From: Clostridia bacterium
GTDB lineage: Bacteria > Bacillota > Clostridia > RGIG7378
Reading direction: 5' to 3'
DNA length: 42,955 bases
NCBI GenBank assembly: GCA_017559445.1
Contig: JAFYSJ010000027.1
Coordinates: forward strand, 1-42,955
Under the pieces are notes generated by a model that saw only the letters and a list, made by a program, of their open reading frames with translations, did not search any database and was not told the origin of the DNA. The translations under genes were made by a program, and so were the position numbers. Of this stretch, positions 1 through 25,963 are shown one piece after another. Numbering within the stretch: the first letter of the stretch is position 1; each line of letters starts with the position of its first letter.

Positions 1-220
1 CGCTAGTGGCCGCCTTCGGCTAGTGGCCGCGCAGTCGCGCTAGTGAGCCGCAACTGCGTTGCTAGTATACGCTCGTTTCACTCGCTAGTGAGCCGCTGCG
101 CTAGTGGCCGCCTTCGGCTAGTGGCCGCGCAGTCGCGCTAGTGAGCCGCAACTGCGTTGCTAGTATACGCTCGTTTCACTCGCTAGTGAGCCGGCTGCGC
201 CTAGTAGGCCGCCTTCGGCT
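1..220. repeat. CTAGT-joined micro-hairpin array A (98-bp higher-order repeat)
   Basis: Every 16-23 bases the pentamer CTAGT recurs and separates short GC-rich modules. Starting at base 3 the module lengths are 17, 20, 22, 23 and 16, which sum to 98. The same series then repeats from base 101 with few changes and ends in variant modules at 183-220. Several modules are small perfect hairpins, such as GCCG-CCTT-CGGC, GCGC-AGTC-GCGC and GCAAC-TGC-GTTGC. The 98-bp period is not a multiple of three and no reading frame or start signal fits, so this is non-coding. The array touches the window edge and may continue to the left. A second array of the same modules lies at 2594-2880 in the same orientation. 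Confidence 0.9.
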
Positions 221-289
221 CATCATGCTTAACGATAAAATGATGATTGTATATGAAATATTTTAAGACCATAGGATCCTAAAAACATT

Positions 290-320
290 CACTAAACACC
301 AAACACTAATCACTAATCAC
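290..320. repeat. Heptanucleotide tandem repeat CACTAAW
   Basis: Four heptamers in a row, CACTAAA, CACCAAA, CACTAAT and CACTAAT, are followed by a partial CAC. They lie in the spacer between array A and the rubredoxin gene. No function is evident; the tract runs directly into the inverted repeat at 320-348. Confidence 0.6.
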
Positions 321-348
321 TGTAAATTTAGAAAAACAAAATTTACAG
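320..348 (-). other. 10-bp inverted repeat just after the rubredoxin stop codon
   Basis: CTGTAAATTT at 320-329 is the exact reverse complement of AAATTTACAG at 339-348, with a nine-base loop. It begins one base after the rubredoxin stop codon, so it would form a hairpin at the 3' end of that message. There is no T-run behind it (the T-rich stretch is in the loop), so it looks more like a stabilising 3' hairpin than a classical intrinsic terminator. Confidence 0.5.
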
Positions 349-349
349 T

Positions 350-505
350 CTATTCTACAGAAAACTCGTCCTTGCCTGCGCCACAGAGAGGGCAAACCCA
401 ATCCTCTGGAACATCAGCCCAAGCTGTGCCCGCAGCAATACCATTATCTGGATCGCCTACTGCTTCATCGTAAACATATCCACAAAGATCACATACGTAT
501 TTCAT
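350..505 (-). CDS. rd: Rubredoxin
   Basis: Rubredoxin, a 51-residue cytoplasmic one-iron electron carrier. It passes single electrons from NAD(P)H:rubredoxin reductases to rubrerythrin, superoxide reductase or oxygen reductases, so in anaerobes it usually serves oxygen and peroxide defence. Two knuckle motifs hold the iron: YVCDLCGY near the start (Cys5, Cys8) and [13 protein letters not shown] near the end (Cys38, Cys41). The middle has the usual acidic and aromatic pattern ([14 protein letters not shown]). The ATG at 505 has a GGAGG site a few bases upstream, and the length matches the family exactly. It lies between repeat array A and glgB with no partner reductase in the window, so its redox partner is unknown. 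Identification is close to certain. Confidence 0.95.
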
Positions 506-518
506 AAATTCCTCCAAT

Positions 519-2507
519 TTAAATCTTCTTTAATATTATTGCCGTTCTCTGTGGCAAATAACACTGGAAGCCAATTCTACCATCTTCTCCTCTAGTAGCC
601 TCGTAGATATACTGCTTATCTACTCTATTATGGCCACCATACTCTCCATCGTCTGTTGACAGGATTACCTGGTACTTGCCAACCTGCTCTACAGGAACAT
701 AGTATTCCTCAAAGGATTCTGTTGGGTTAAAGTTAAATGCAAATACAACCTTACCCTTTGTATAAATAATTACCTTATCTCCATTGAGCATCCACTGGTT
801 ATTAGCCTTTTTGCTAAGTAATCTCTCCGCCTTTAACAAATGAATCATATCTCTGTCAAAGTTGTTAAGCTGTCCAAATCTCAATGTATCATCGTCAACA
901 AGGTTCCACTGTCTACGACAATAGTGATAGCTCCATCCATTACCCTCACGTGGGAAGTCGAGCCACTCAGGATGGCCAAACTCGTTGCCCATAAAGTTAA
1001 GGTATCCCTCACCAGCCAAGGAAGCTGTAATAAGGCGAATCATCTTGTGAAGTGCAACACCACGGTCAATCACCAAATTGCCGCTGTCCTTGCGCATACC
1101 TGTGTACATTTCGGCATCGCAAAGACGGAACATAATAGTCTTGTCTCCTACCAAAGCCTGATCATGGGACTCTGCGTAACCTACGTTCTTTTCACCTGGT
1201 CTACGTCCTGTAAGCTCATACCAAAGCTTAATGATATCCCAATAATCATCAGAGTTTTCCTTGATCATCTTAATCCAAAGATCCGGAACACCCATGGAAA
1301 GTCTAAAGTCAAAGCCAATACCACCATCCTCAATTGGAATACACATACCTGGCATACCAGACATATCCTCTGCAATAGTCAAAGCATTGGGGTTAACCTG
1401 GTGAATAAGCTCGTTGGCCAACTGCAAATAAGTTACAGCCTCAACGTCTGTATTCATGGAGAAATACATGTCATATCCAGTAAATGCACTACCAAGTCCA
1501 TGGTCCAAATAAAGCATAGAAGTTACGCCATCAAAACGGAATCCATCGAAATGGAAAACATCCATCCAATACTGAAGATTAGAAAGTAAGAAGTGCAAAA
1601 CTTGGTTTTTGCCATAGTTAAAGAGCTTAGTATCCCAGGCGCTGTGGTAACCCTTAGGTCCCTCATGGAAGAACTGATACTCTGTACCGTCAAAGCAATT
1701 AATACCTTCACTTGTATTCTTAACTGCATGTGAATGAACTACATCAAGCAAAACTGTAATTCCCTTACGGTGAGCTGCGTTAATTAATTCCTTAAGTTCA
1801 CGTCCTGTGCCATATCTAGAAGATGCAGCGAAGAAGTTGGATACCTGATAACCAAAGGAACCATAATATGGATGCTCCATAATGGCCATAATCTGGATTG
1901 TGTTGTAACCCAAATCCTTGATTCTAGGCAAAATATTGTCCTTAAACTCTGTATAAGAACCAACTTTATATGCATCCTGTGCCATACCAATATGACACTC
2001 ATATATAAATGGAGTCTGTGTTCTCTTAAACTTTTGGTCTGTCCACTTAAAGTCGTCGAACATAACGTCGTCAACCTGGGCACACCATGTGTAATTAACG
2101 GGATCCTGAACTACTCTAGTTGCATATGTGGGAATTCTACGAAGAACTTCACCATTGTGAATAACAATAGCCTGTACATTCTGGCCAACCTTAAGGGCAT
2201 CCGCTCCTGGCAAAACAACCTCAAAGACATCATTATCCAATCTCTTCATAGGGCATGACCAAATATCCCAGCCGTTAAAATCTCCGGTGAAATACATAGC
2301 CTCTGCACCTGGTGCCCACTCTCTGTATGTCCAGTGGTCTCCCTCGTAACGAATACCAAAATAAAGGTATCCCTTGGCGAAATCCACTAAGTTGCCATCT
2401 TCGCCAACAAGTTCCTGACGCTTAGACTGATAATTAGCCATGCGCATATCGATATCGTTGCTAAATGGCTCAAGATATGGGTCGATCTTAGTAATCTTAT
2501 AGCTCAT
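519..2507 (-). CDS. glgB: 1,4-alpha-glucan (glycogen) branching enzyme, eukaryotic-like GH13_8 type
   Basis: Branching enzyme that cuts alpha-1,4 glucan chains and rejoins them through alpha-1,6 bonds during glycogen synthesis in the cytoplasm. The 662 residues hold an N-terminal CBM48-like domain (about 45-150) and a GH13 barrel (about 165-560). The nucleophile is Asp326 in [13 protein letters not shown], the acid/base Glu380 in TIAEDMSG, and the third acid Asp449 in [14 protein letters not shown]. That last motif and [12 protein letters not shown] are hallmarks of plant and animal branching enzymes (subfamily GH13_8). Ordinary bacterial GlgB reads more like LSHDEV. The ATG at 2507 follows a G-rich Shine-Dalgarno. 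No other glycogen-synthesis gene adjoins it; glycogen phosphorylase lies 25 kb away. Function is confident; the subfamily call rests on motif recall. Confidence 0.93.
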
Positions 2508-2555
2508 ATGAACCCCCTTTTATATGTATGGGTTTTGATTTTGTTCCTTATAAAA

Positions 2556-2561
2556 ATAATA
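2556..2561 (-). promoter_or_regulatory. Likely extended -10 promoter element of glgB
   Basis: On the minus strand this reads TGGTATTAT, a TATTAT box with an upstream TG, about 50 bases before the glgB start. The matching -35 region (TTTCTA, 17 bases further up) is poor, so the extended -10 would carry the promoter. It sits between glgB and repeat array B. Confidence 0.5.
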
Positions 2562-2593
2562 CCACAATTAGCTTGATATAGAAAGGTGAAAAG

Positions 2594-2880
2594 ATAGTGA
2601 GCCGCTGCGCTAGTGAGCCGCTGCGCTAGTGAGCCGCTGCGCTAGTAGGCCGCAACTGCGTTGCTAGTATCCGCTCATTTCACTCGCTAGTGAGCCGCTG
2701 CGCTAGTAGGCCGCACCGTTGGTGCTAGTGAGCCACGTTGCTAGTATCCGCTCGTTTCACTCGCTAGTGAACCACGTTGTTAGTGAGCCGCAACTGCGTT
2801 GCTAGTATCCGCTCGTTTCTCTCGCTAGTGAGTCGCTTCGCTAGTAGGCCGCAACTGCGTTGCTAGTGAGCCACTTGCCC
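2594..2880. repeat. CTAGT-joined micro-hairpin array B
   Basis: Sixteen modules of fixed length classes (16, 22 or 23 bases) each begin with CTAGT or a one-base variant. Three identical 16-mers open the array. After them 22-base modules carrying GCAAC-TGC-GTTGC or CACC-GTT-GGTG hairpins, 23-base CTCGTTTCACTCG modules and 16-base modules alternate. The modules match those of array A at 1-220 and have the same orientation, so the two arrays are direct repeats around the rubredoxin-glgB segment. The last module runs into TTGCCC, the -35 box of the marR promoter. No coding potential is seen. Confidence 0.9.
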
Positions 2881-2903
2881 TAAACCAAACCTTGTGTTAT
2901 ACT
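2875..2903 (+). promoter_or_regulatory. Promoter of the marR-DUF1538-PII operon
   Basis: TTGCCC at 2875-2880 and TATACT at 2898-2903 are separated by exactly 17 bases. The -35 box overlaps the last CTAGT module of array B. Transcription would start near 2910, inside the palindrome at 2909-2924. Confidence 0.7.
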
Positions 2904-2908
2904 CATAT

Positions 2909-2924
2909 TGTTCTAAAACGAACA
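2909..2924 (+). promoter_or_regulatory. Operator-like inverted repeat TGTTC-N6-GAACA
   Basis: TGTTC at 2909-2913 and GAACA at 2920-2924 form a perfect 5-bp inverted repeat around the predicted transcription start. That is where a MarR repressor typically binds to control its own operon. The 13-mer ATTGTTCTAAAAC (2907-2919) recurs at 42882-42894, inside a palindrome before another gene. Binding by the adjacent MarR protein is inferred from position. Confidence 0.55.
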
Positions 2925-2953
2925 GTTCTATTTTTAACCAATCGAGGTATTTC

Positions 2954-3388
2954 ATGAACAGTCTAATCAAACACCATTACGCACATAAAGAACTTTACTG
3001 TCTCATAATGGAGCCCGTTTGCACCAAGTACGACCTTAACATGGCTGAACTTTTGACTTTACTGTTCATCCACGACCATCCAGAGCAGAACACCGCATCC
3101 GACATAACAACAGCTCTTAAGTTGGCTAAATCTCATGTTTCCGTATCTGTTCGTACTCTAGAAGATCGCGGATATATAATCTGCTGTCACGAAGATGGCA
3201 ACCGCAGATCTGTACGACTTAATGTTACAGACAACGCCGCTCCTGTCATTGCATATGGCAAGGAAATCCAGAATAAGTATTTCGATGTACTCTTCACAGA
3301 TTTTTCAGAAGATGAGCGTGCTCTTCTCTATTCCATGGTGGACCGCCTCAACTTAAACGCACAAAACTACGTAAGGGAGAATTATTAA
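2954..3388 (+). CDS. MarR-family winged-helix transcriptional regulator
   Basis: MarR-type DNA-binding regulator of about 144 residues. The centre has the winged-helix pattern: TASDITTALKLAKSHVSVSVRTLEDRGYI is the helix-turn-helix and CHEDGNRRSVRLNVT the wing. Helical flanks for dimerisation lie on both sides, as is normal for the family. I chose the ATG at 2954 because CGAGGT lies just upstream; a longer frame from 2894 would begin inside the promoter-operator region. Its stop codon overlaps the start codon of the DUF1538 gene by one base, so the two are translationally coupled, and it probably controls its own operon through the 2909-2924 palindrome. The ligand is unknown. Confidence 0.88.
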   Translation: MNSLIKHHYAHKELYCLIMEPVCTKYDLNMAELLTLLFIHDHPEQNTASDITTALKLAKSHVSVSVRTLEDRGYIICCHEDGNRRSVRLNVTDNAAPVIAYGKEIQNKYFDVLFTDFSEDERALLYSMVDRLNLNAQNYVRENY

Positions 3389-4914
3389 TGAATTTACAAC
3401 TTAAAGAAAAAATAAATGAATCCCTTGCGGCCGTATTGCCAATTACCCTAATCGTGCTAGCTATTAGCATTTTCTTGGTTCCATTGGCTGTTGGCACTGT
3501 TGTTATGTTCTTCTGTGGTGCCCTCATGCTCATCGTAGGTATGGGTATGTTCCAGCTTGGCGCTGAGACTGCCATGGGTCCATTGGGAGAAGGTATTGGT
3601 GTTGAACTTTCTAAATCCAAAAGGATTTGGCTTGTTGCTATTATCACCTTCGTTCTTGGTTTACTTATCACTATTGCAGAACCTGACCTTGTTGTTTTGT
3701 CAAACCAGGTACCATCTATTCCTAACAACACCTTAATTTTCACCGTTGGTATTGGCGTAGGCATTTTCCTTGCCACGGCAATTTTGAGAATTATCTTCAA
3801 AATCAGTCTTTCCATACTCCTTATGATCCTGTATGGAATCATGCTAGTATTCTCTATTTTTGTACCAGACAGTTTCTTAGCTGTAGCCTTTGACTCAGGT
3901 GGCGTTACAACTGGCCCCATGACAGTTCCTTTCATCATGGCCTTGGGTGTTGGTCTTTCCACAATCCGTGGTGACAAAGATGCTACAAGTGACAGTTTCG
4001 GTCTCGTTGCACTTTCCAGCATTGGTCCTATTCTGGCAGTAATGATTCTCGGACTTGTGTTCTCCCCTAAGGATGGCGCATATTCCTCCACAGTTATTCC
4101 TGCCGTTAGCACCATGAGAGATGTTGTAAACGCTTTTACTGTGGAGCTCCCACACTTTGCAAAGGAAGTTTCCCTCTCATTGCTTCCAATTTTAGGCGTA
4201 TTCCTTTTCTTCCAGCTTATTAGCCGCAGATATCACAGAAAGCAGCGCGCCAGGGTTATTATGGGCTTCCTGTACACATTCATTGGACTTGTACTTTTCC
4301 TCTGCGGTGTTAACGTAGGTTTTGCCCCTGTTGGTGCCCTTCTTGGAAAAGAATTAGCCTCATCTGCAACCAAATGGCTCCTTGTTCCAATTGGCATGTT
4401 AATCGGCTATTATATTGTTAAGGCAGAGCCTGCAATCCAGGTACTCAACAAACAGGTACAGTCAGTTACAAATGGTACTGTTTCTGCAAAGTCCATGAAC
4501 CGTTGCCTTTCCATTGGTGTTTCTATTTCTATTGGATTGGCTGTGGTGAGAATCCTAACTGGTATTCCTATTTACTGGATTGTGGTTCCTGGATACATAA
4601 CAGCATTGGTTCTTTCACTTTTTGTACCACGTATCTTCGTCGGTATCGCTTTTGACTCTGGTGGAGTTGCCAGTGGTCCCATGACATCCACTTTCCTAAT
4701 TCCTCTAAGCATTGGTGCATGCGAGGCAATCGGTGGAAATGTTATGACAGATGCCTTTGGTGTTGTTGCATTAGTTGCCCTTACACCACTTATCGCAGTG
4801 CAAATTATGGGCGTACAGTATGCTATTAAGCTTCGCAAGCAGACCAAGATTATTAAGCCAGAAAGCTTGTTGCCAGCGGATTGCGACATTATTGTAGAAT
4901 TTGAGGAGGAGTAA
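3388..4914 (+). CDS. DUF1538 polytopic membrane protein with internal duplication
   Basis: Integral membrane protein of 508 residues that I recognise as DUF1538. It is built as two homologous halves. Each has a run of hydrophobic helices, an acidic EPD/EPA turn followed by a NQVP or NKQVQ segment (AEPDLVVLSNQVP; AEPAIQVLNKQVQ), and the signature FDSGGVTTGPMT (about residue 168) or FDSGGVASGPMT (about residue 422). Such inverted or tandem duplication with glycine-rich hairpins in the membrane is typical of transporters, but no substrate is established to my knowledge. The gene overlaps marR by one base and is followed after three bases by a PII-like gene, so a PII-gated transporter is the most natural reading. 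The C-terminus is acidic and cytoplasmic. Confidence 0.85.
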   Translation: MNLQLKEKINESLAAVLPITLIVLAISIFLVPLAVGTVVMFFCGALMLIVGMGMFQLGAETAMGPLGEGIGVELSKSKRIWLVAIITFVLGLLITIAEPDLVVLSNQVPSIPNNTLIFTVGIGVGIFLATAILRIIFKISLSILLMILYGIMLVFSIFVPDSFLAVAFDSGGVTTGPMTVPFIMALGVGLSTIRGDKDATSDSFGLVALSSIGPILAVMILGLVFSPKDGAYSSTVIPAVSTMRDVVNAFTVELPHFAKEVSLSLLPILGVFLFFQLISRRYHRKQRARVIMGFLYTFIGLVLFLCGVNVGFAPVGALLGKELASSATKWLLVPIGMLIGYYIVKAEPAIQVLNKQVQSVTNGTVSAKSMNRCLSIGVSISIGLAVVRILTGIPIYWIVVPGYITALVLSLFVPRIFVGIAFDSGGVASGPMTSTFLIPLSIGACEAIGGNVMTDAFGVVALVALTPLIAVQIMGVQYAIKLRKQTKIIKPESLLPADCDIIVEFEEE

Positions 4915-24235: not shown

Positions 24236-25963
24236 TTATTTTGTCGTCTTAATTCCCTGTTTTTTGATTATAGCAACAATAATTGCCACAATTCCTGCAC
24301 TTACGCCACCTATTACGAGGACAACAAGTCCGTCTGAACCTTCATTTTTAGACGAATCTGCCACAGCTCCAACCCCATCATTATTAGGTACAGATGTCTC
24401 AAGGGGCTTGACAGGTTCTTCCGTGGGCTCATTTGTAGGCACTTCTGTAGGTATATCAACAGGCTTTTCTGTCGGAGCCGTTGTTGGTGCTACAGTTGGT
24501 GTAGCTGTCGGTGTCGCCGTTGGTGTGGCTGGAGGTGCTACAGTTGGCGTAGCTGTCGGTGCTACAGTTGGATCAGCTGTCGGTGTCGCCGTTGCTGTAA
24601 CTGTCGGCACCACCGTTGGAGTAGCTGTAGGCTTAGGCGTGGCCGTAGGCTTTGGCGTTGGAGTAGCTGTAGGCTTAGGTGTGGCCGTAGGCTTTGGCGT
24701 TGGAGTAACTGTAGAGGCTGTATACTTCGCCAAATTCAGTTCTTTTACATCATATGCCCCACTGTATGGCTCATTATCTATATATATAGTAATATATTTA
24801 GAGCCAGGCTTAATTTCAGTTCTATAGATACTATAATAGTCGCTATCAATTTCATCACTTATATCTATTGTATACACAACTGTTAAAAGCCCTGTAGATG
24901 GATTAACCATCAAAACATCCTTAGGACCATTTACAAAAATCATTCCGTTATAGACACCTATTCCTGAATACGTGCCTGTATAAATCAAATTTTCCTCTCC
25001 TGTCGGTCTCCAATAATCTGTGTAAATAGATATTCTCTTAGTCTCTCCACTAGAAACAGTATTCTCTACTAGAGCCTTACCATCTTTTCCATGCTGAGAT
25101 CCATCTATGTAATACCATTTACCATTTAATGTAACCATAAGGCCTTCTGCATTTTTCCAAAAAGCATTATCGTATTTTGTGGATGTGCAAGTGATCTTTT
25201 CACCATAGTTCGTTGCATCTGACCTATTAGGATCAAGCGTCAACAACCTACTGTCACTAATTAACAAATACTCATGGACTCCTTCTCTATAAGTAAAGTT
25301 TCCAGAACCATCGCTAGCATAATTTGAAGGGTCATCCCATGTAGTATCCACGTTATACCATTGACCATCCAATTTAACCACAACCCATGAGTGATTAGCC
25401 TGTCTACTATATCTATAACAGCATTCAATACCCTGAGATTTAAGCAATGCAATCATAAGCATAGAATATGCATCACAAACGCCTGCTCCCTCTTTCATCA
25501 TGTTATAAGCATCGTAAACAAAGTATGTATAGTCATACTCATAAACAGACACCACATATTCATGAAGCCAAATAACCTTGTTAACTGCATCTAGGCCACT
25601 TGGCATTGCAGACAAAATACTAGATAACATAGAGTTATACTCTGCTATTGCCCCATCTATCTCGTCAGATGGAATTGTATATTTAAAATATATATTAGAA
25701 ATATGTGCTGTAGGACCCAGTGTAGAATAAGAAAAAGCATTTGAGTAATAAAAGAACTGAGGATTAGCATAATAAACTTCATAAAACGGAGCTGTGCTAA
25801 CTGGCCATGTTCCTCCCAAATCTACGGAATCCTTACGATTGGACATTGCTTCATAAATATAATCCTGTGCTGTATATGCTGCCTGCACAGAAAGGCAAAG
25901 GCTTGCCACAATAGTGCTCAAGATGAGCACAACTGCAACAAGCCTAATAATTACATGTTTCAT
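24236..25963 (-). CDS. Secreted, membrane-anchored transglutaminase-like surface protein with a PT-rich stalk
   Basis: Surface protein of 575 residues. A signal peptide (about 1-29, ending VQAA) is followed by an N-terminal region and a transglutaminase-like papain-fold domain at about 125-240. Its triad is visible: Cys163 in GAGVCDAYSM, His191 in ANHSWVVVKL and Asp206 in YNVDTTWDD. Such domains in bacteria act as peptidases or protein-crosslinking or wall-modifying enzymes; the substrate is unknown. After about residue 415 comes a long threonine-proline-alanine stalk with 14-residue repeats (TATPTPKPTATPKP). A final transmembrane helix (VLVIGGVSAGIVAIIVAII) and the basic tail KKQGIKTTK follow, with no LPxTG sorting motif. 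The ATG at 25963 has a GGAGGG site. Single gene, ended by the terminator at 24088-24124. Confidence 0.85.
   Translation of the reverse strand: MKHVIIRLVAVVLILSTIVASLCLSVQAAYTAQDYIYEAMSNRKDSVDLGGTWPVSTAPFYEVYYANPQFFYYSNAFSYSTLGPTAHISNIYFKYTIPSDEIDGAIAEYNSMLSSILSAMPSGLDAVNKVIWLHEYVVSVYEYDYTYFVYDAYNMMKEGAGVCDAYSMLMIALLKSQGIECCYRYSRQANHSWVVVKLDGQWYNVDTTWDDPSNYASDGSGNFTYREGVHEYLLISDSRLLTLDPNRSDATNYGEKITCTSTKYDNAFWKNAEGLMVTLNGKWYYIDGSQHGKDGKALVENTVSSGETKRISIYTDYWRPTGEENLIYTGTYSGIGVYNGMIFVNGPKDVLMVNPSTGLLTVVYTIDISDEIDSDYYSIYRTEIKPGSKYITIYIDNEPYSGAYDVKELNLAKYTASTVTPTPKPTATPKPTATPTPKPTATPKPTATPTVVPTVTATATPTADPTVAPTATPTVAPPATPTATPTATPTVAPTTAPTEKPVDIPTEVPTNEPTEEPVKPLETSVPNNDGVGAVADSSKNEGSDGLVVLVIGGVSAGIVAIIVAIIKKQGIKTTK
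24618..24714. repeat. 42-bp in-frame tandem repeat in the PT-rich stalk
   Basis: A 42-base unit starting at 24618 recurs at 24660 with one difference and partially at 24702. It encodes a 14-residue Pro-Thr-Lys unit of the surface protein stalk. Weaker GTCGGTGTCGCC-type repeats continue down to about 24470. Such tracts vary in copy number by slippage. Confidence 0.75.

What the first reader, a model, noticed from the sequence alone, without database searches (positions are those of the whole stretch)
1..2880. Two direct arrays of CTAGT-joined micro-hairpins flank rubredoxin-glgB
Arrays at 1-220 and 2594-2880 are made of the same modules in fixed length classes (16, 17, 20, 22, 23 bases). Each starts with CTAGT and many form tiny perfect hairpins with different stems and the same frame. 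Array A is a 98-bp higher-order repeat present twice. Module order is shuffled between the arrays, as if modules can be copied or swapped. I know no named family of this build. Direct orientation allows recombination that would delete or duplicate the rubredoxin-glgB cassette, and the foreign-looking glgB fits a movable cassette.
Basis: seen in the sequence. Interest (0 to 1): 0.75.

Follow-up and report, generated by a model that had tools for sequence, protein, structure and literature searches.

The report
Genome-wide arrays of tiny DNA hairpins
A gut bacterium carries about seventy chains of tiny hairpins between its genes, built to rules known to make single-stranded DNA exceptionally stable; similar chains occur in many related bacteria and are catalogued, perhaps wrongly, as an RNA.

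Summary
The arrays are real, but they are 2 of 73 array stretches parsed in this 1.68 Mb Clostridia genome (one 13-mer: 126 exact copies; reversed control 0). They do not mark a glgB cassette: a related MAG has glgB beside rubredoxin without arrays.

On the strand opposite CTAGT, 734 modules read [hairpin]-GG-NN(N)-ACTA. 707 pair fully with Watson-Crick or G.A pairs (shuffled 40%). Loops follow the published rule for ultrastable DNA minihairpins: 439 of 639 triloops are GNA; 48 of 68 tetraloops are GNNA, 47 of them not RNA-type GNRA. By distinct type the bias is weaker (22 of 62, 6 of 18). Neighbouring modules avoid being identical. Arrays tend to start at stop codons or terminator T-tracts, in the direction of that gene (37 against 7 within 40 nt).

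The exact modules were found in no other genome searched. The same build with other spacers occurs in other Clostridia; one spacer type is Rfam Gut-1 RNA (71 of 382 class genomes), again GNA-rich. This genome's arrays fail the Gut-1 model.

Best reading: a species-specific, amplified variant of a Gut-1-type minihairpin repeat, acting and probably spreading as single-stranded DNA. No propagating enzyme was found (Y1 transposase, reverse transcriptase absent). An RNA role is the main rival.

The parts
1..220 (+). Array A, CTAGT strand +, hairpin strand -; about 2.2 copies of a 98-bp block; cut by the contig start
2594..2880 (+). Array B, CTAGT strand +, hairpin strand -; 13 modules parsed; lies between divergently transcribed genes, so it does not abut a stop codon
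267..321 (-). Remnant of a companion dispersed element: core GACCATAGGATCCT... followed by a heptamer arm (NCACTAA)n
   Evidence: read; the same kind of element at other loci
350..505 (-). Rubredoxin gene (51 aa), neighbour, not part of the repeat
   Evidence: Pfam PF00301, E 5.3e-25
519..2507 (-). glgB-like branching enzyme gene (662 aa), neighbour, not part of the repeat
   Evidence: Pfam CBM_48, Alpha-amylase and Alpha-amylase_C; 80 of 175 relatives kept
2954..3388 (+). MarR-family regulator gene, neighbour, not part of the repeat
   Evidence: Pfam MarR_2, E 2.7e-10

Best explanation
The arrays are a species-specific, strongly amplified variant of a repeat type spread over Clostridia: chains of minihairpins joined by a fixed short spacer, of which Rfam Gut-1 is the one named spacer type. 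The unit is [R-stem-loop-stem'-Y]-GG-NN(N)-ACTA. The fold that has been kept is that of single-stranded DNA on the strand opposite CTAGT (GNA/GNNA loops, tandem G.A pairs). Shown: the genome-wide family, the hairpin rule, the match between joint base and closing base, the neighbour grammar, the bias to gene ends and terminators in gene orientation, and the same build with other spacers elsewhere. Inferred: arrays grow by duplication of multi-module blocks when the hairpin strand is single-stranded during replication or repair, and spread between intergenic sites as non-autonomous DNA by ectopic copying at the ACTA joints; gene ends and the stretch behind terminators are tolerated or preferred landing sites; any benefit to the host is secondary.
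For: 126 exact 13-mers genome-wide, reversed control 0; 707 of 734 modules pair fully with WC or G.A, shuffled 39.6%; joint/closing bases G-C 661, A-T 48, neither 25; 439 of 639 triloops GNA, 48 of 68 tetraloops GNNA, 47 of these not GNRA, 160 modules are d(GCGNAGC); the published DNA minihairpin rule, PMC4686876 passages; the same loop bias in AATWTCACT-type arrays (81 of 119 triloops, 44 of 57 tetraloops) and ATTTCAY arrays (62 of 79, 10 of 16); adjacent identical modules 4 against 30.3 in shuffles, spacer classes alternate 451 of 661 against 338.6; block reuse above shuffles also without contig-end arrays; orientation at gene 3' ends 37 against 7 within 40 nt; none of 12 arrays with both flanks found in the sister sample has hairpin modules there, so the expansion is young.
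Against: No mobilising enzyme: Y1_Tnp and RVT_1 absent from own genome and G001. Energy models do not favour DNA: with RNA parameters the CTAGT strand is the more stable in 62 of 73 arrays, with DNA parameters the hairpin strand in only 42 of 73, and both give d(GCGNAGC) zero energy. 200 of 639 triloops are not GNA, and by distinct hairpin type only 22 of 62 triloops are GNA. Most block sharing first seen (4 of 5 runs of four) is between contig-end arrays that may be halves of one array. Array B of the window does not abut a stop codon. The Gut-1 model does not match these arrays.
Confidence: 0.55

Rival explanations
1. RNA-level 3'-UTR element: the CTAGT strand is transcribed as the tail of the upstream gene, and its hairpins protect the mRNA, back up termination or bind a protein, as the name Gut-1 RNA implies.
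For: Array orientation follows the gene whose end it abuts (37 against 7); RNA folding favours the CTAGT strand in 62 of 73 arrays, median z -1.06; Gut-1 was described as a noncoding RNA (PMC2864571 passages).
Against: On the RNA strand the loops are UNC and UNNC, no known stable RNA loops (recalled), while the other strand obeys the DNA rule; 160 modules would have a 2-bp RNA stem, zero energy; several arrays and at least 13 of 30 Gut-1 loci start behind a terminator, where little transcript is expected.
Confidence: 0.25
2. REP-like repeat moved in trans by a RAYT/Y1 or other HUH transposase that recognises a tetranucleotide plus hairpin; here ACTA/CTAG plus hairpin.
For: Tetranucleotide directly 5' of each hairpin and ACTA at both array ends; hairpin fold on one DNA strand.
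Against: No Y1_Tnp in the 96% complete own genome or in G001; the tetranucleotide is not GTAG or CGTC, the two types of PMC3733652 (passages).
Confidence: 0.12
3. Chromosome-structure or protein-binding sites kept by selection, as proposed for some REPs.
For: Many intergenic copies; hairpins of a limited set of types.
Against: Absent from the same-genus G001 and from the sister sites compared; copy number and module order vary without visible rule of spacing.
Confidence: 0.06
4. The first reader's movable rubredoxin-glgB cassette bounded by recombining arrays.
For: Two arrays in direct orientation on either side.
Against: 73 array stretches exist, so flanking pairs arise by chance; the two genes are adjacent without arrays in L102.
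Confidence: 0.02

Closest known systems
Gut-1 RNA, Rfam RF01706 (Weinberg et al. 2010, PMC2864571, passages only)
   Same: Tandem minihairpins joined by a fixed spacer that contains GTGA; GNA loops on the complementary strand; often just behind a terminator; many copies in some genomes.
   Different: Spacer GTGAAAT, not TAGTGAGCC; in loci read here usually two inverted arms of three to six hairpins, not one arm of up to 21; the model matches none of the 57 array stretches fetched, nor window 1-4000.
REP / GTAG- and CGTC-tagged palindromes (PMC3733652, passages)
   Same: Short intergenic palindromes in high copy with a tetranucleotide at one foot.
   Different: Tag is ACTA/CTAG; stems of 2-6 pairs; long head-to-tail chains of different hairpins; no RAYT found.
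Selfish palindromes of Volvox organelle DNA (PMC2670323, passages)
   Same: Many short hairpins filling intergenic space, read as selfish DNA.
   Different: Organelles; average 50 nt; loops TAAA/TTTA; nested, not spacer-joined chains.
Heptanucleotide short tandem repeats (STRR) of cyanobacteria (recalled; papers seen as listing only)
   Same: 7-bp tandem repeats occur in the same genome and in G001, at 2 of 11 compared sites exactly where an array stands.
   Different: STRRs have no hairpins between units.

Membership tests
Gut-1 RNA (RF01706) | Match to the curated covariance model | tested here: not met
   No Gut-1 match at E<=0.1 in any of the 57 array stretches nor at E<=1 in window 1-4000. 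The genome as a whole has one match, E 3.4e-7, place not listed.
Gut-1 RNA (RF01706) | Three or more minihairpins joined by a short constant spacer with GTGA | tested here: met
   Spacer TAGTGAGCC/TAGTGAACC and variants between hairpins; Gut-1 consensus has GUGAAAU
Gut-1 RNA (RF01706) | Acts as a transcribed RNA | not testable with these tools
   No expression data held
REP/RAYT repeats | GTAG or CGTC tetranucleotide at the foot of the palindrome | tested here: not met
   Joint is ACTA followed by G or A; tag types from PMC3733652 passages
REP/RAYT repeats | A Y1 (RAYT) transposase in the genome | tested here: not met
   PF01797: 0 matches in own genome, 0 in G001, 13 of 21 genomes searched have one
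CRISPR | Identical repeats separated by unique spacers | tested here: not met
   The segments between joints are hairpins reused genome-wide: 104 distinct for 734 modules
Ultrastable DNA minihairpin (GNA/GNNA loop, at least two G-C pairs) | Loop sequence rule | tested here: met
   439 of 639 triloops GNA and 48 of 68 tetraloops GNNA; by distinct type 22 of 62 and 6 of 18; the rule from PMC4686876 passages
Ultrastable DNA minihairpin (GNA/GNNA loop, at least two G-C pairs) | Measured stability | not testable with these tools
   The energy models used give the shortest ones zero energy

The most novel reading that the evidence does not exclude
A distinct class of self-amplifying bacterial DNA: chained minihairpins whose fold is selected as single-stranded DNA, widespread in Clostridia with a lineage-specific spacer, landing at gene ends and behind terminators, and propagated by an unidentified single-strand DNA process. 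Rfam Gut-1 would then be a DNA element read as an RNA.
Probability: 0.3. Interest if true: 0.85.

Novelty: new variant of a known kind. Interest (0 to 1): 0.6.

Why it matters
The exact modules appear in no other genome or collection searched here, yet the build and the loop rule recur in other Clostridia families with other spacers. That points to a general process that makes and spreads DNA minihairpins. It also makes an old annotation testable: whether Gut-1, listed as a noncoding RNA, is really a DNA repeat. The preference for stop codons and terminators gives an experimental handle on how such repeats land.

Tried and rejected
Y1/RAYT mobilisation: no Y1_Tnp in own genome or G001. Reverse transcriptase or group II intron aiming at terminators: no RVT_1 in either; of the 12 Gut-1-rich genomes put in that call only G195 and G215 have one, against 8 of 10 others. 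Virus or plasmid origin: no match for the exact 21-base pattern in viral contigs or for array B in plasmids and phages. The 27-base module pattern: 0 stretches in the species genomes, own genome possibly left out. A heptamer search found other genomes with 7-bp repeats and helped with the companion element only. Of the loci brought, several are matches inside genes (for example L264, L268, L269, L274, L279) and were set aside as chance. Folding energies do not decide between RNA and DNA. Local GC skew of the hairpin strand (28 positive, 45 negative of 73) cannot be separated from the gene-orientation bias. One empty site (second L081 array) shows ACTAA where the array stands, but at about 70% identity this is an anecdote. 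Papers: ten searches; no listed title or abstract start describes such arrays; RF01706 is named in one held paper and 'Gut-1 RNA' as a phrase in none. Only open-licence PubMed Central papers are held, so this is no proof of absence from print.

Full report
OBSERVATION. Arrays at 1-220 and 2594-2880 are present as described. The window is contig C36 of a 1,684,159-base, 40-contig, 96.4% complete assembly and begins inside array A. The 13-mer GCTAGTGAGCCGC occurs 126 times in that genome (57 and 69 by strand; read backwards 0) and not in G001, the one other genome held of the genus. A BLAST with array B gives 68 matches at E<=0.01, 40 of 90 candidates being scored. I fetched 57 stretches round array places and, with the window, parsed 73 merged array stretches. 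Eight of them run into a contig end (list), and some of these may be halves of one array cut by the assembler; on the other side, a few places lie outside my stretches (for example C1:22062-22279, and C28:78390). So 'about seventy' is the fair number.

ANATOMY. On the strand opposite CTAGT, 734 modules read [hairpin]-GG-NN(N)-ACTA and follow head to tail, 3 to 21 per array. 634 hairpins are fully Watson-Crick and 707 if G.A is allowed; with the hairpin letters shuffled, 15.6% and 39.6%. The last joint base belongs to the stem: first and last bases are G-C in 661, A-T in 48 and neither in 25. One class keeps a tandem GA/GA mismatch while the pairs above it change together (GT/AC, AT/AT, AC/GT). 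There are 104 distinct hairpins; the twelve commonest make 509 of 734 modules.

DNA-TYPE LOOPS. 439 of 639 triloops are GNA (17 are TNC) and 48 of 68 tetraloops GNNA; 47 of these 48 have a pyrimidine in third place and so are not RNA GNRA loops; 643 of 707 loops are closed by C-G; 160 modules are d(GCGNAGC). Counted by distinct hairpin the bias is weaker but present: 22 of 62 triloop types GNA, 4 TNC, 6 of 18 tetraloop types GNNA. PMC4686876 (passages) states that GNA or GNNA loops with at least two G-C pairs make extraordinarily stable DNA minihairpins, Tm 78 C for GCGAAGC. The bias recurs with other spacers: 81 of 119 triloops and 44 of 57 tetraloops among 181 hairpins selected between AATWTCACT-type spacers (most come from one genome, G195), and 62 of 79 and 10 of 16 among 96 perfect hairpins in 112 segments between ATTTCAY spacers, in 27 of 29 loci (these loci were picked by the Gut-1 model, whose consensus contains CUUCG, so GAA is over-sampled). 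Against: energy models do not favour DNA (RNA parameters, CTAGT strand the more stable in 62 of 73; DNA parameters, hairpin strand in 42 of 73), and they give the shortest hairpins no stability at all.

GRAMMAR AND COPYING. Adjacent modules are identical 4 times against 30.3 (sd 4.9) in within-array shuffles; adjacent hairpins 15 against 61.7; four steps apart, hairpins repeat 80 times against 44.0. Long ...CACTA spacers alternate with the others in 451 of 661 steps against 338.6 (sd 12.0). Over all 73 stretches, runs of three identical modules are shared 12 times and runs of four 5 times, but 4 of those 5 are between contig-end arrays. Without the eight contig-end arrays the counts are 4 shared and 5 internal runs of three (shuffles 0.2-0.7 and 0-0.5) and 1 and 1 runs of four (shuffles 0-0.05). 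Growth by duplication of blocks of two or four modules is my inference; copying between loci is supported only by these few runs and by the shared set of modules.

WHERE THEY SIT. One of 73 array stretches lies inside a mechanical ORF. Of gene 3' ends next to an array and within 40 nt, 37 read in the direction of the CTAGT strand and 7 against it; beyond 40 nt, 6 and 25 (Fisher p=2e-8). The 40-nt limit was chosen after a first look, and genes are ORFs of at least 90 codons. Many arrays begin at the stop codon (TTAG|TGAGCC, AGTGA|ACC) or right after a terminator T-tract (by eye). Array A's start is off the contig and array B lies between divergent genes, so the window's own arrays do not show the rule. 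In 605 kb of sister sequence (G001 plus L102) 12 arrays at 11 sites have both flanks. None has hairpin modules there; at 2 sites (L038/L252 and L066/L221) the sister has a 7-bp repeat directly behind the stop codon where the array stands. Both genomes carry a companion element with heptamer arms round a core; a remnant lies at 267-321.

RELATIVES. The exact modules were not found in species genomes (one 27-mer, own genome possibly left out), viral contigs, plasmids or phages, and GCTAGTGARCCGC has one hit each in 4 of the 390 other class genomes searched and none in the rest. A search for two common hairpins at the right distance hit 25 of 391 genomes; part of these hits are inside genes, part are arrays with another spacer, AATACCACT/AATATCACT. 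Two of the latter score 47 bits with Rfam Gut-1, just under its cut-off of 50. Gut-1 is found in 71 of 382 class genomes at E<=0.01 and over the cut-off in 38, with at most 12 candidates scored per genome; 2 of 14 control genomes ring at E<=0.01, none over the cut-off. Weinberg et al. list it under noncoding RNAs, human gut only (PMC2864571, passages). In 13 of 30 Gut-1 loci a rough test on one arm sees a terminator just upstream. The arrays of the window genome do not match the Gut-1 model, so I do not file them as Gut-1; they share its build.

MECHANISM. Best reading: non-autonomous minihairpin repeats that exist and spread at the level of single-stranded DNA. The enzyme, if any, is unknown: Y1_Tnp and RVT_1 are absent from the own genome and G001, though the assembly is 96% complete and repeats break it. 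The RNA 3'-UTR reading is the main rival because orientation follows transcription and RNA folding favours that strand.

THE CASSETTE. glgB and rubredoxin are ordinary genes (Pfam), adjacent without arrays in L102, and GlgB relatives are common in Clostridia. The pair of arrays round them is what about seventy arrays in 1.68 Mb would give by chance.

Noticed in passing
window 24482-24714: Tandem repeats with periods 18, 24, 42 and 72 bp inside a long minus-strand ORF (24236-25963), so probably a repetitive protein segment.
   Followed up: no
L184, L185, L188, L198 (other class genomes); L214, L234, L252, L256, L259 (G001): Heptamer repeats of differing sequence (ATTAGTG, AAGAGGT), in some loci as two inverted arms round a core of 60-90 bases, like a miniature inverted-repeat element with 7-bp periodic arms.
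   Followed up: partly
L040 and L043: Two arrays in different contigs share the same unique-looking flank (CTAACTAAAAAGTGCCTAGCTGACGAAT), so some arrays may sit in larger duplicated segments.
   Followed up: no
L034, L035, L037, L050, L057: A second dispersed multi-hairpin element (CCTCCCGCGCTTCGGAAGTAGCGGGCGACTTTGG...) borders several arrays and also ends in GGTTCACTAG or close variants.
   Followed up: no
L035 701-1048; L036 305-392: RNase P RNA and a glycine riboswitch near arrays, above their Rfam cut-offs.
   Followed up: no
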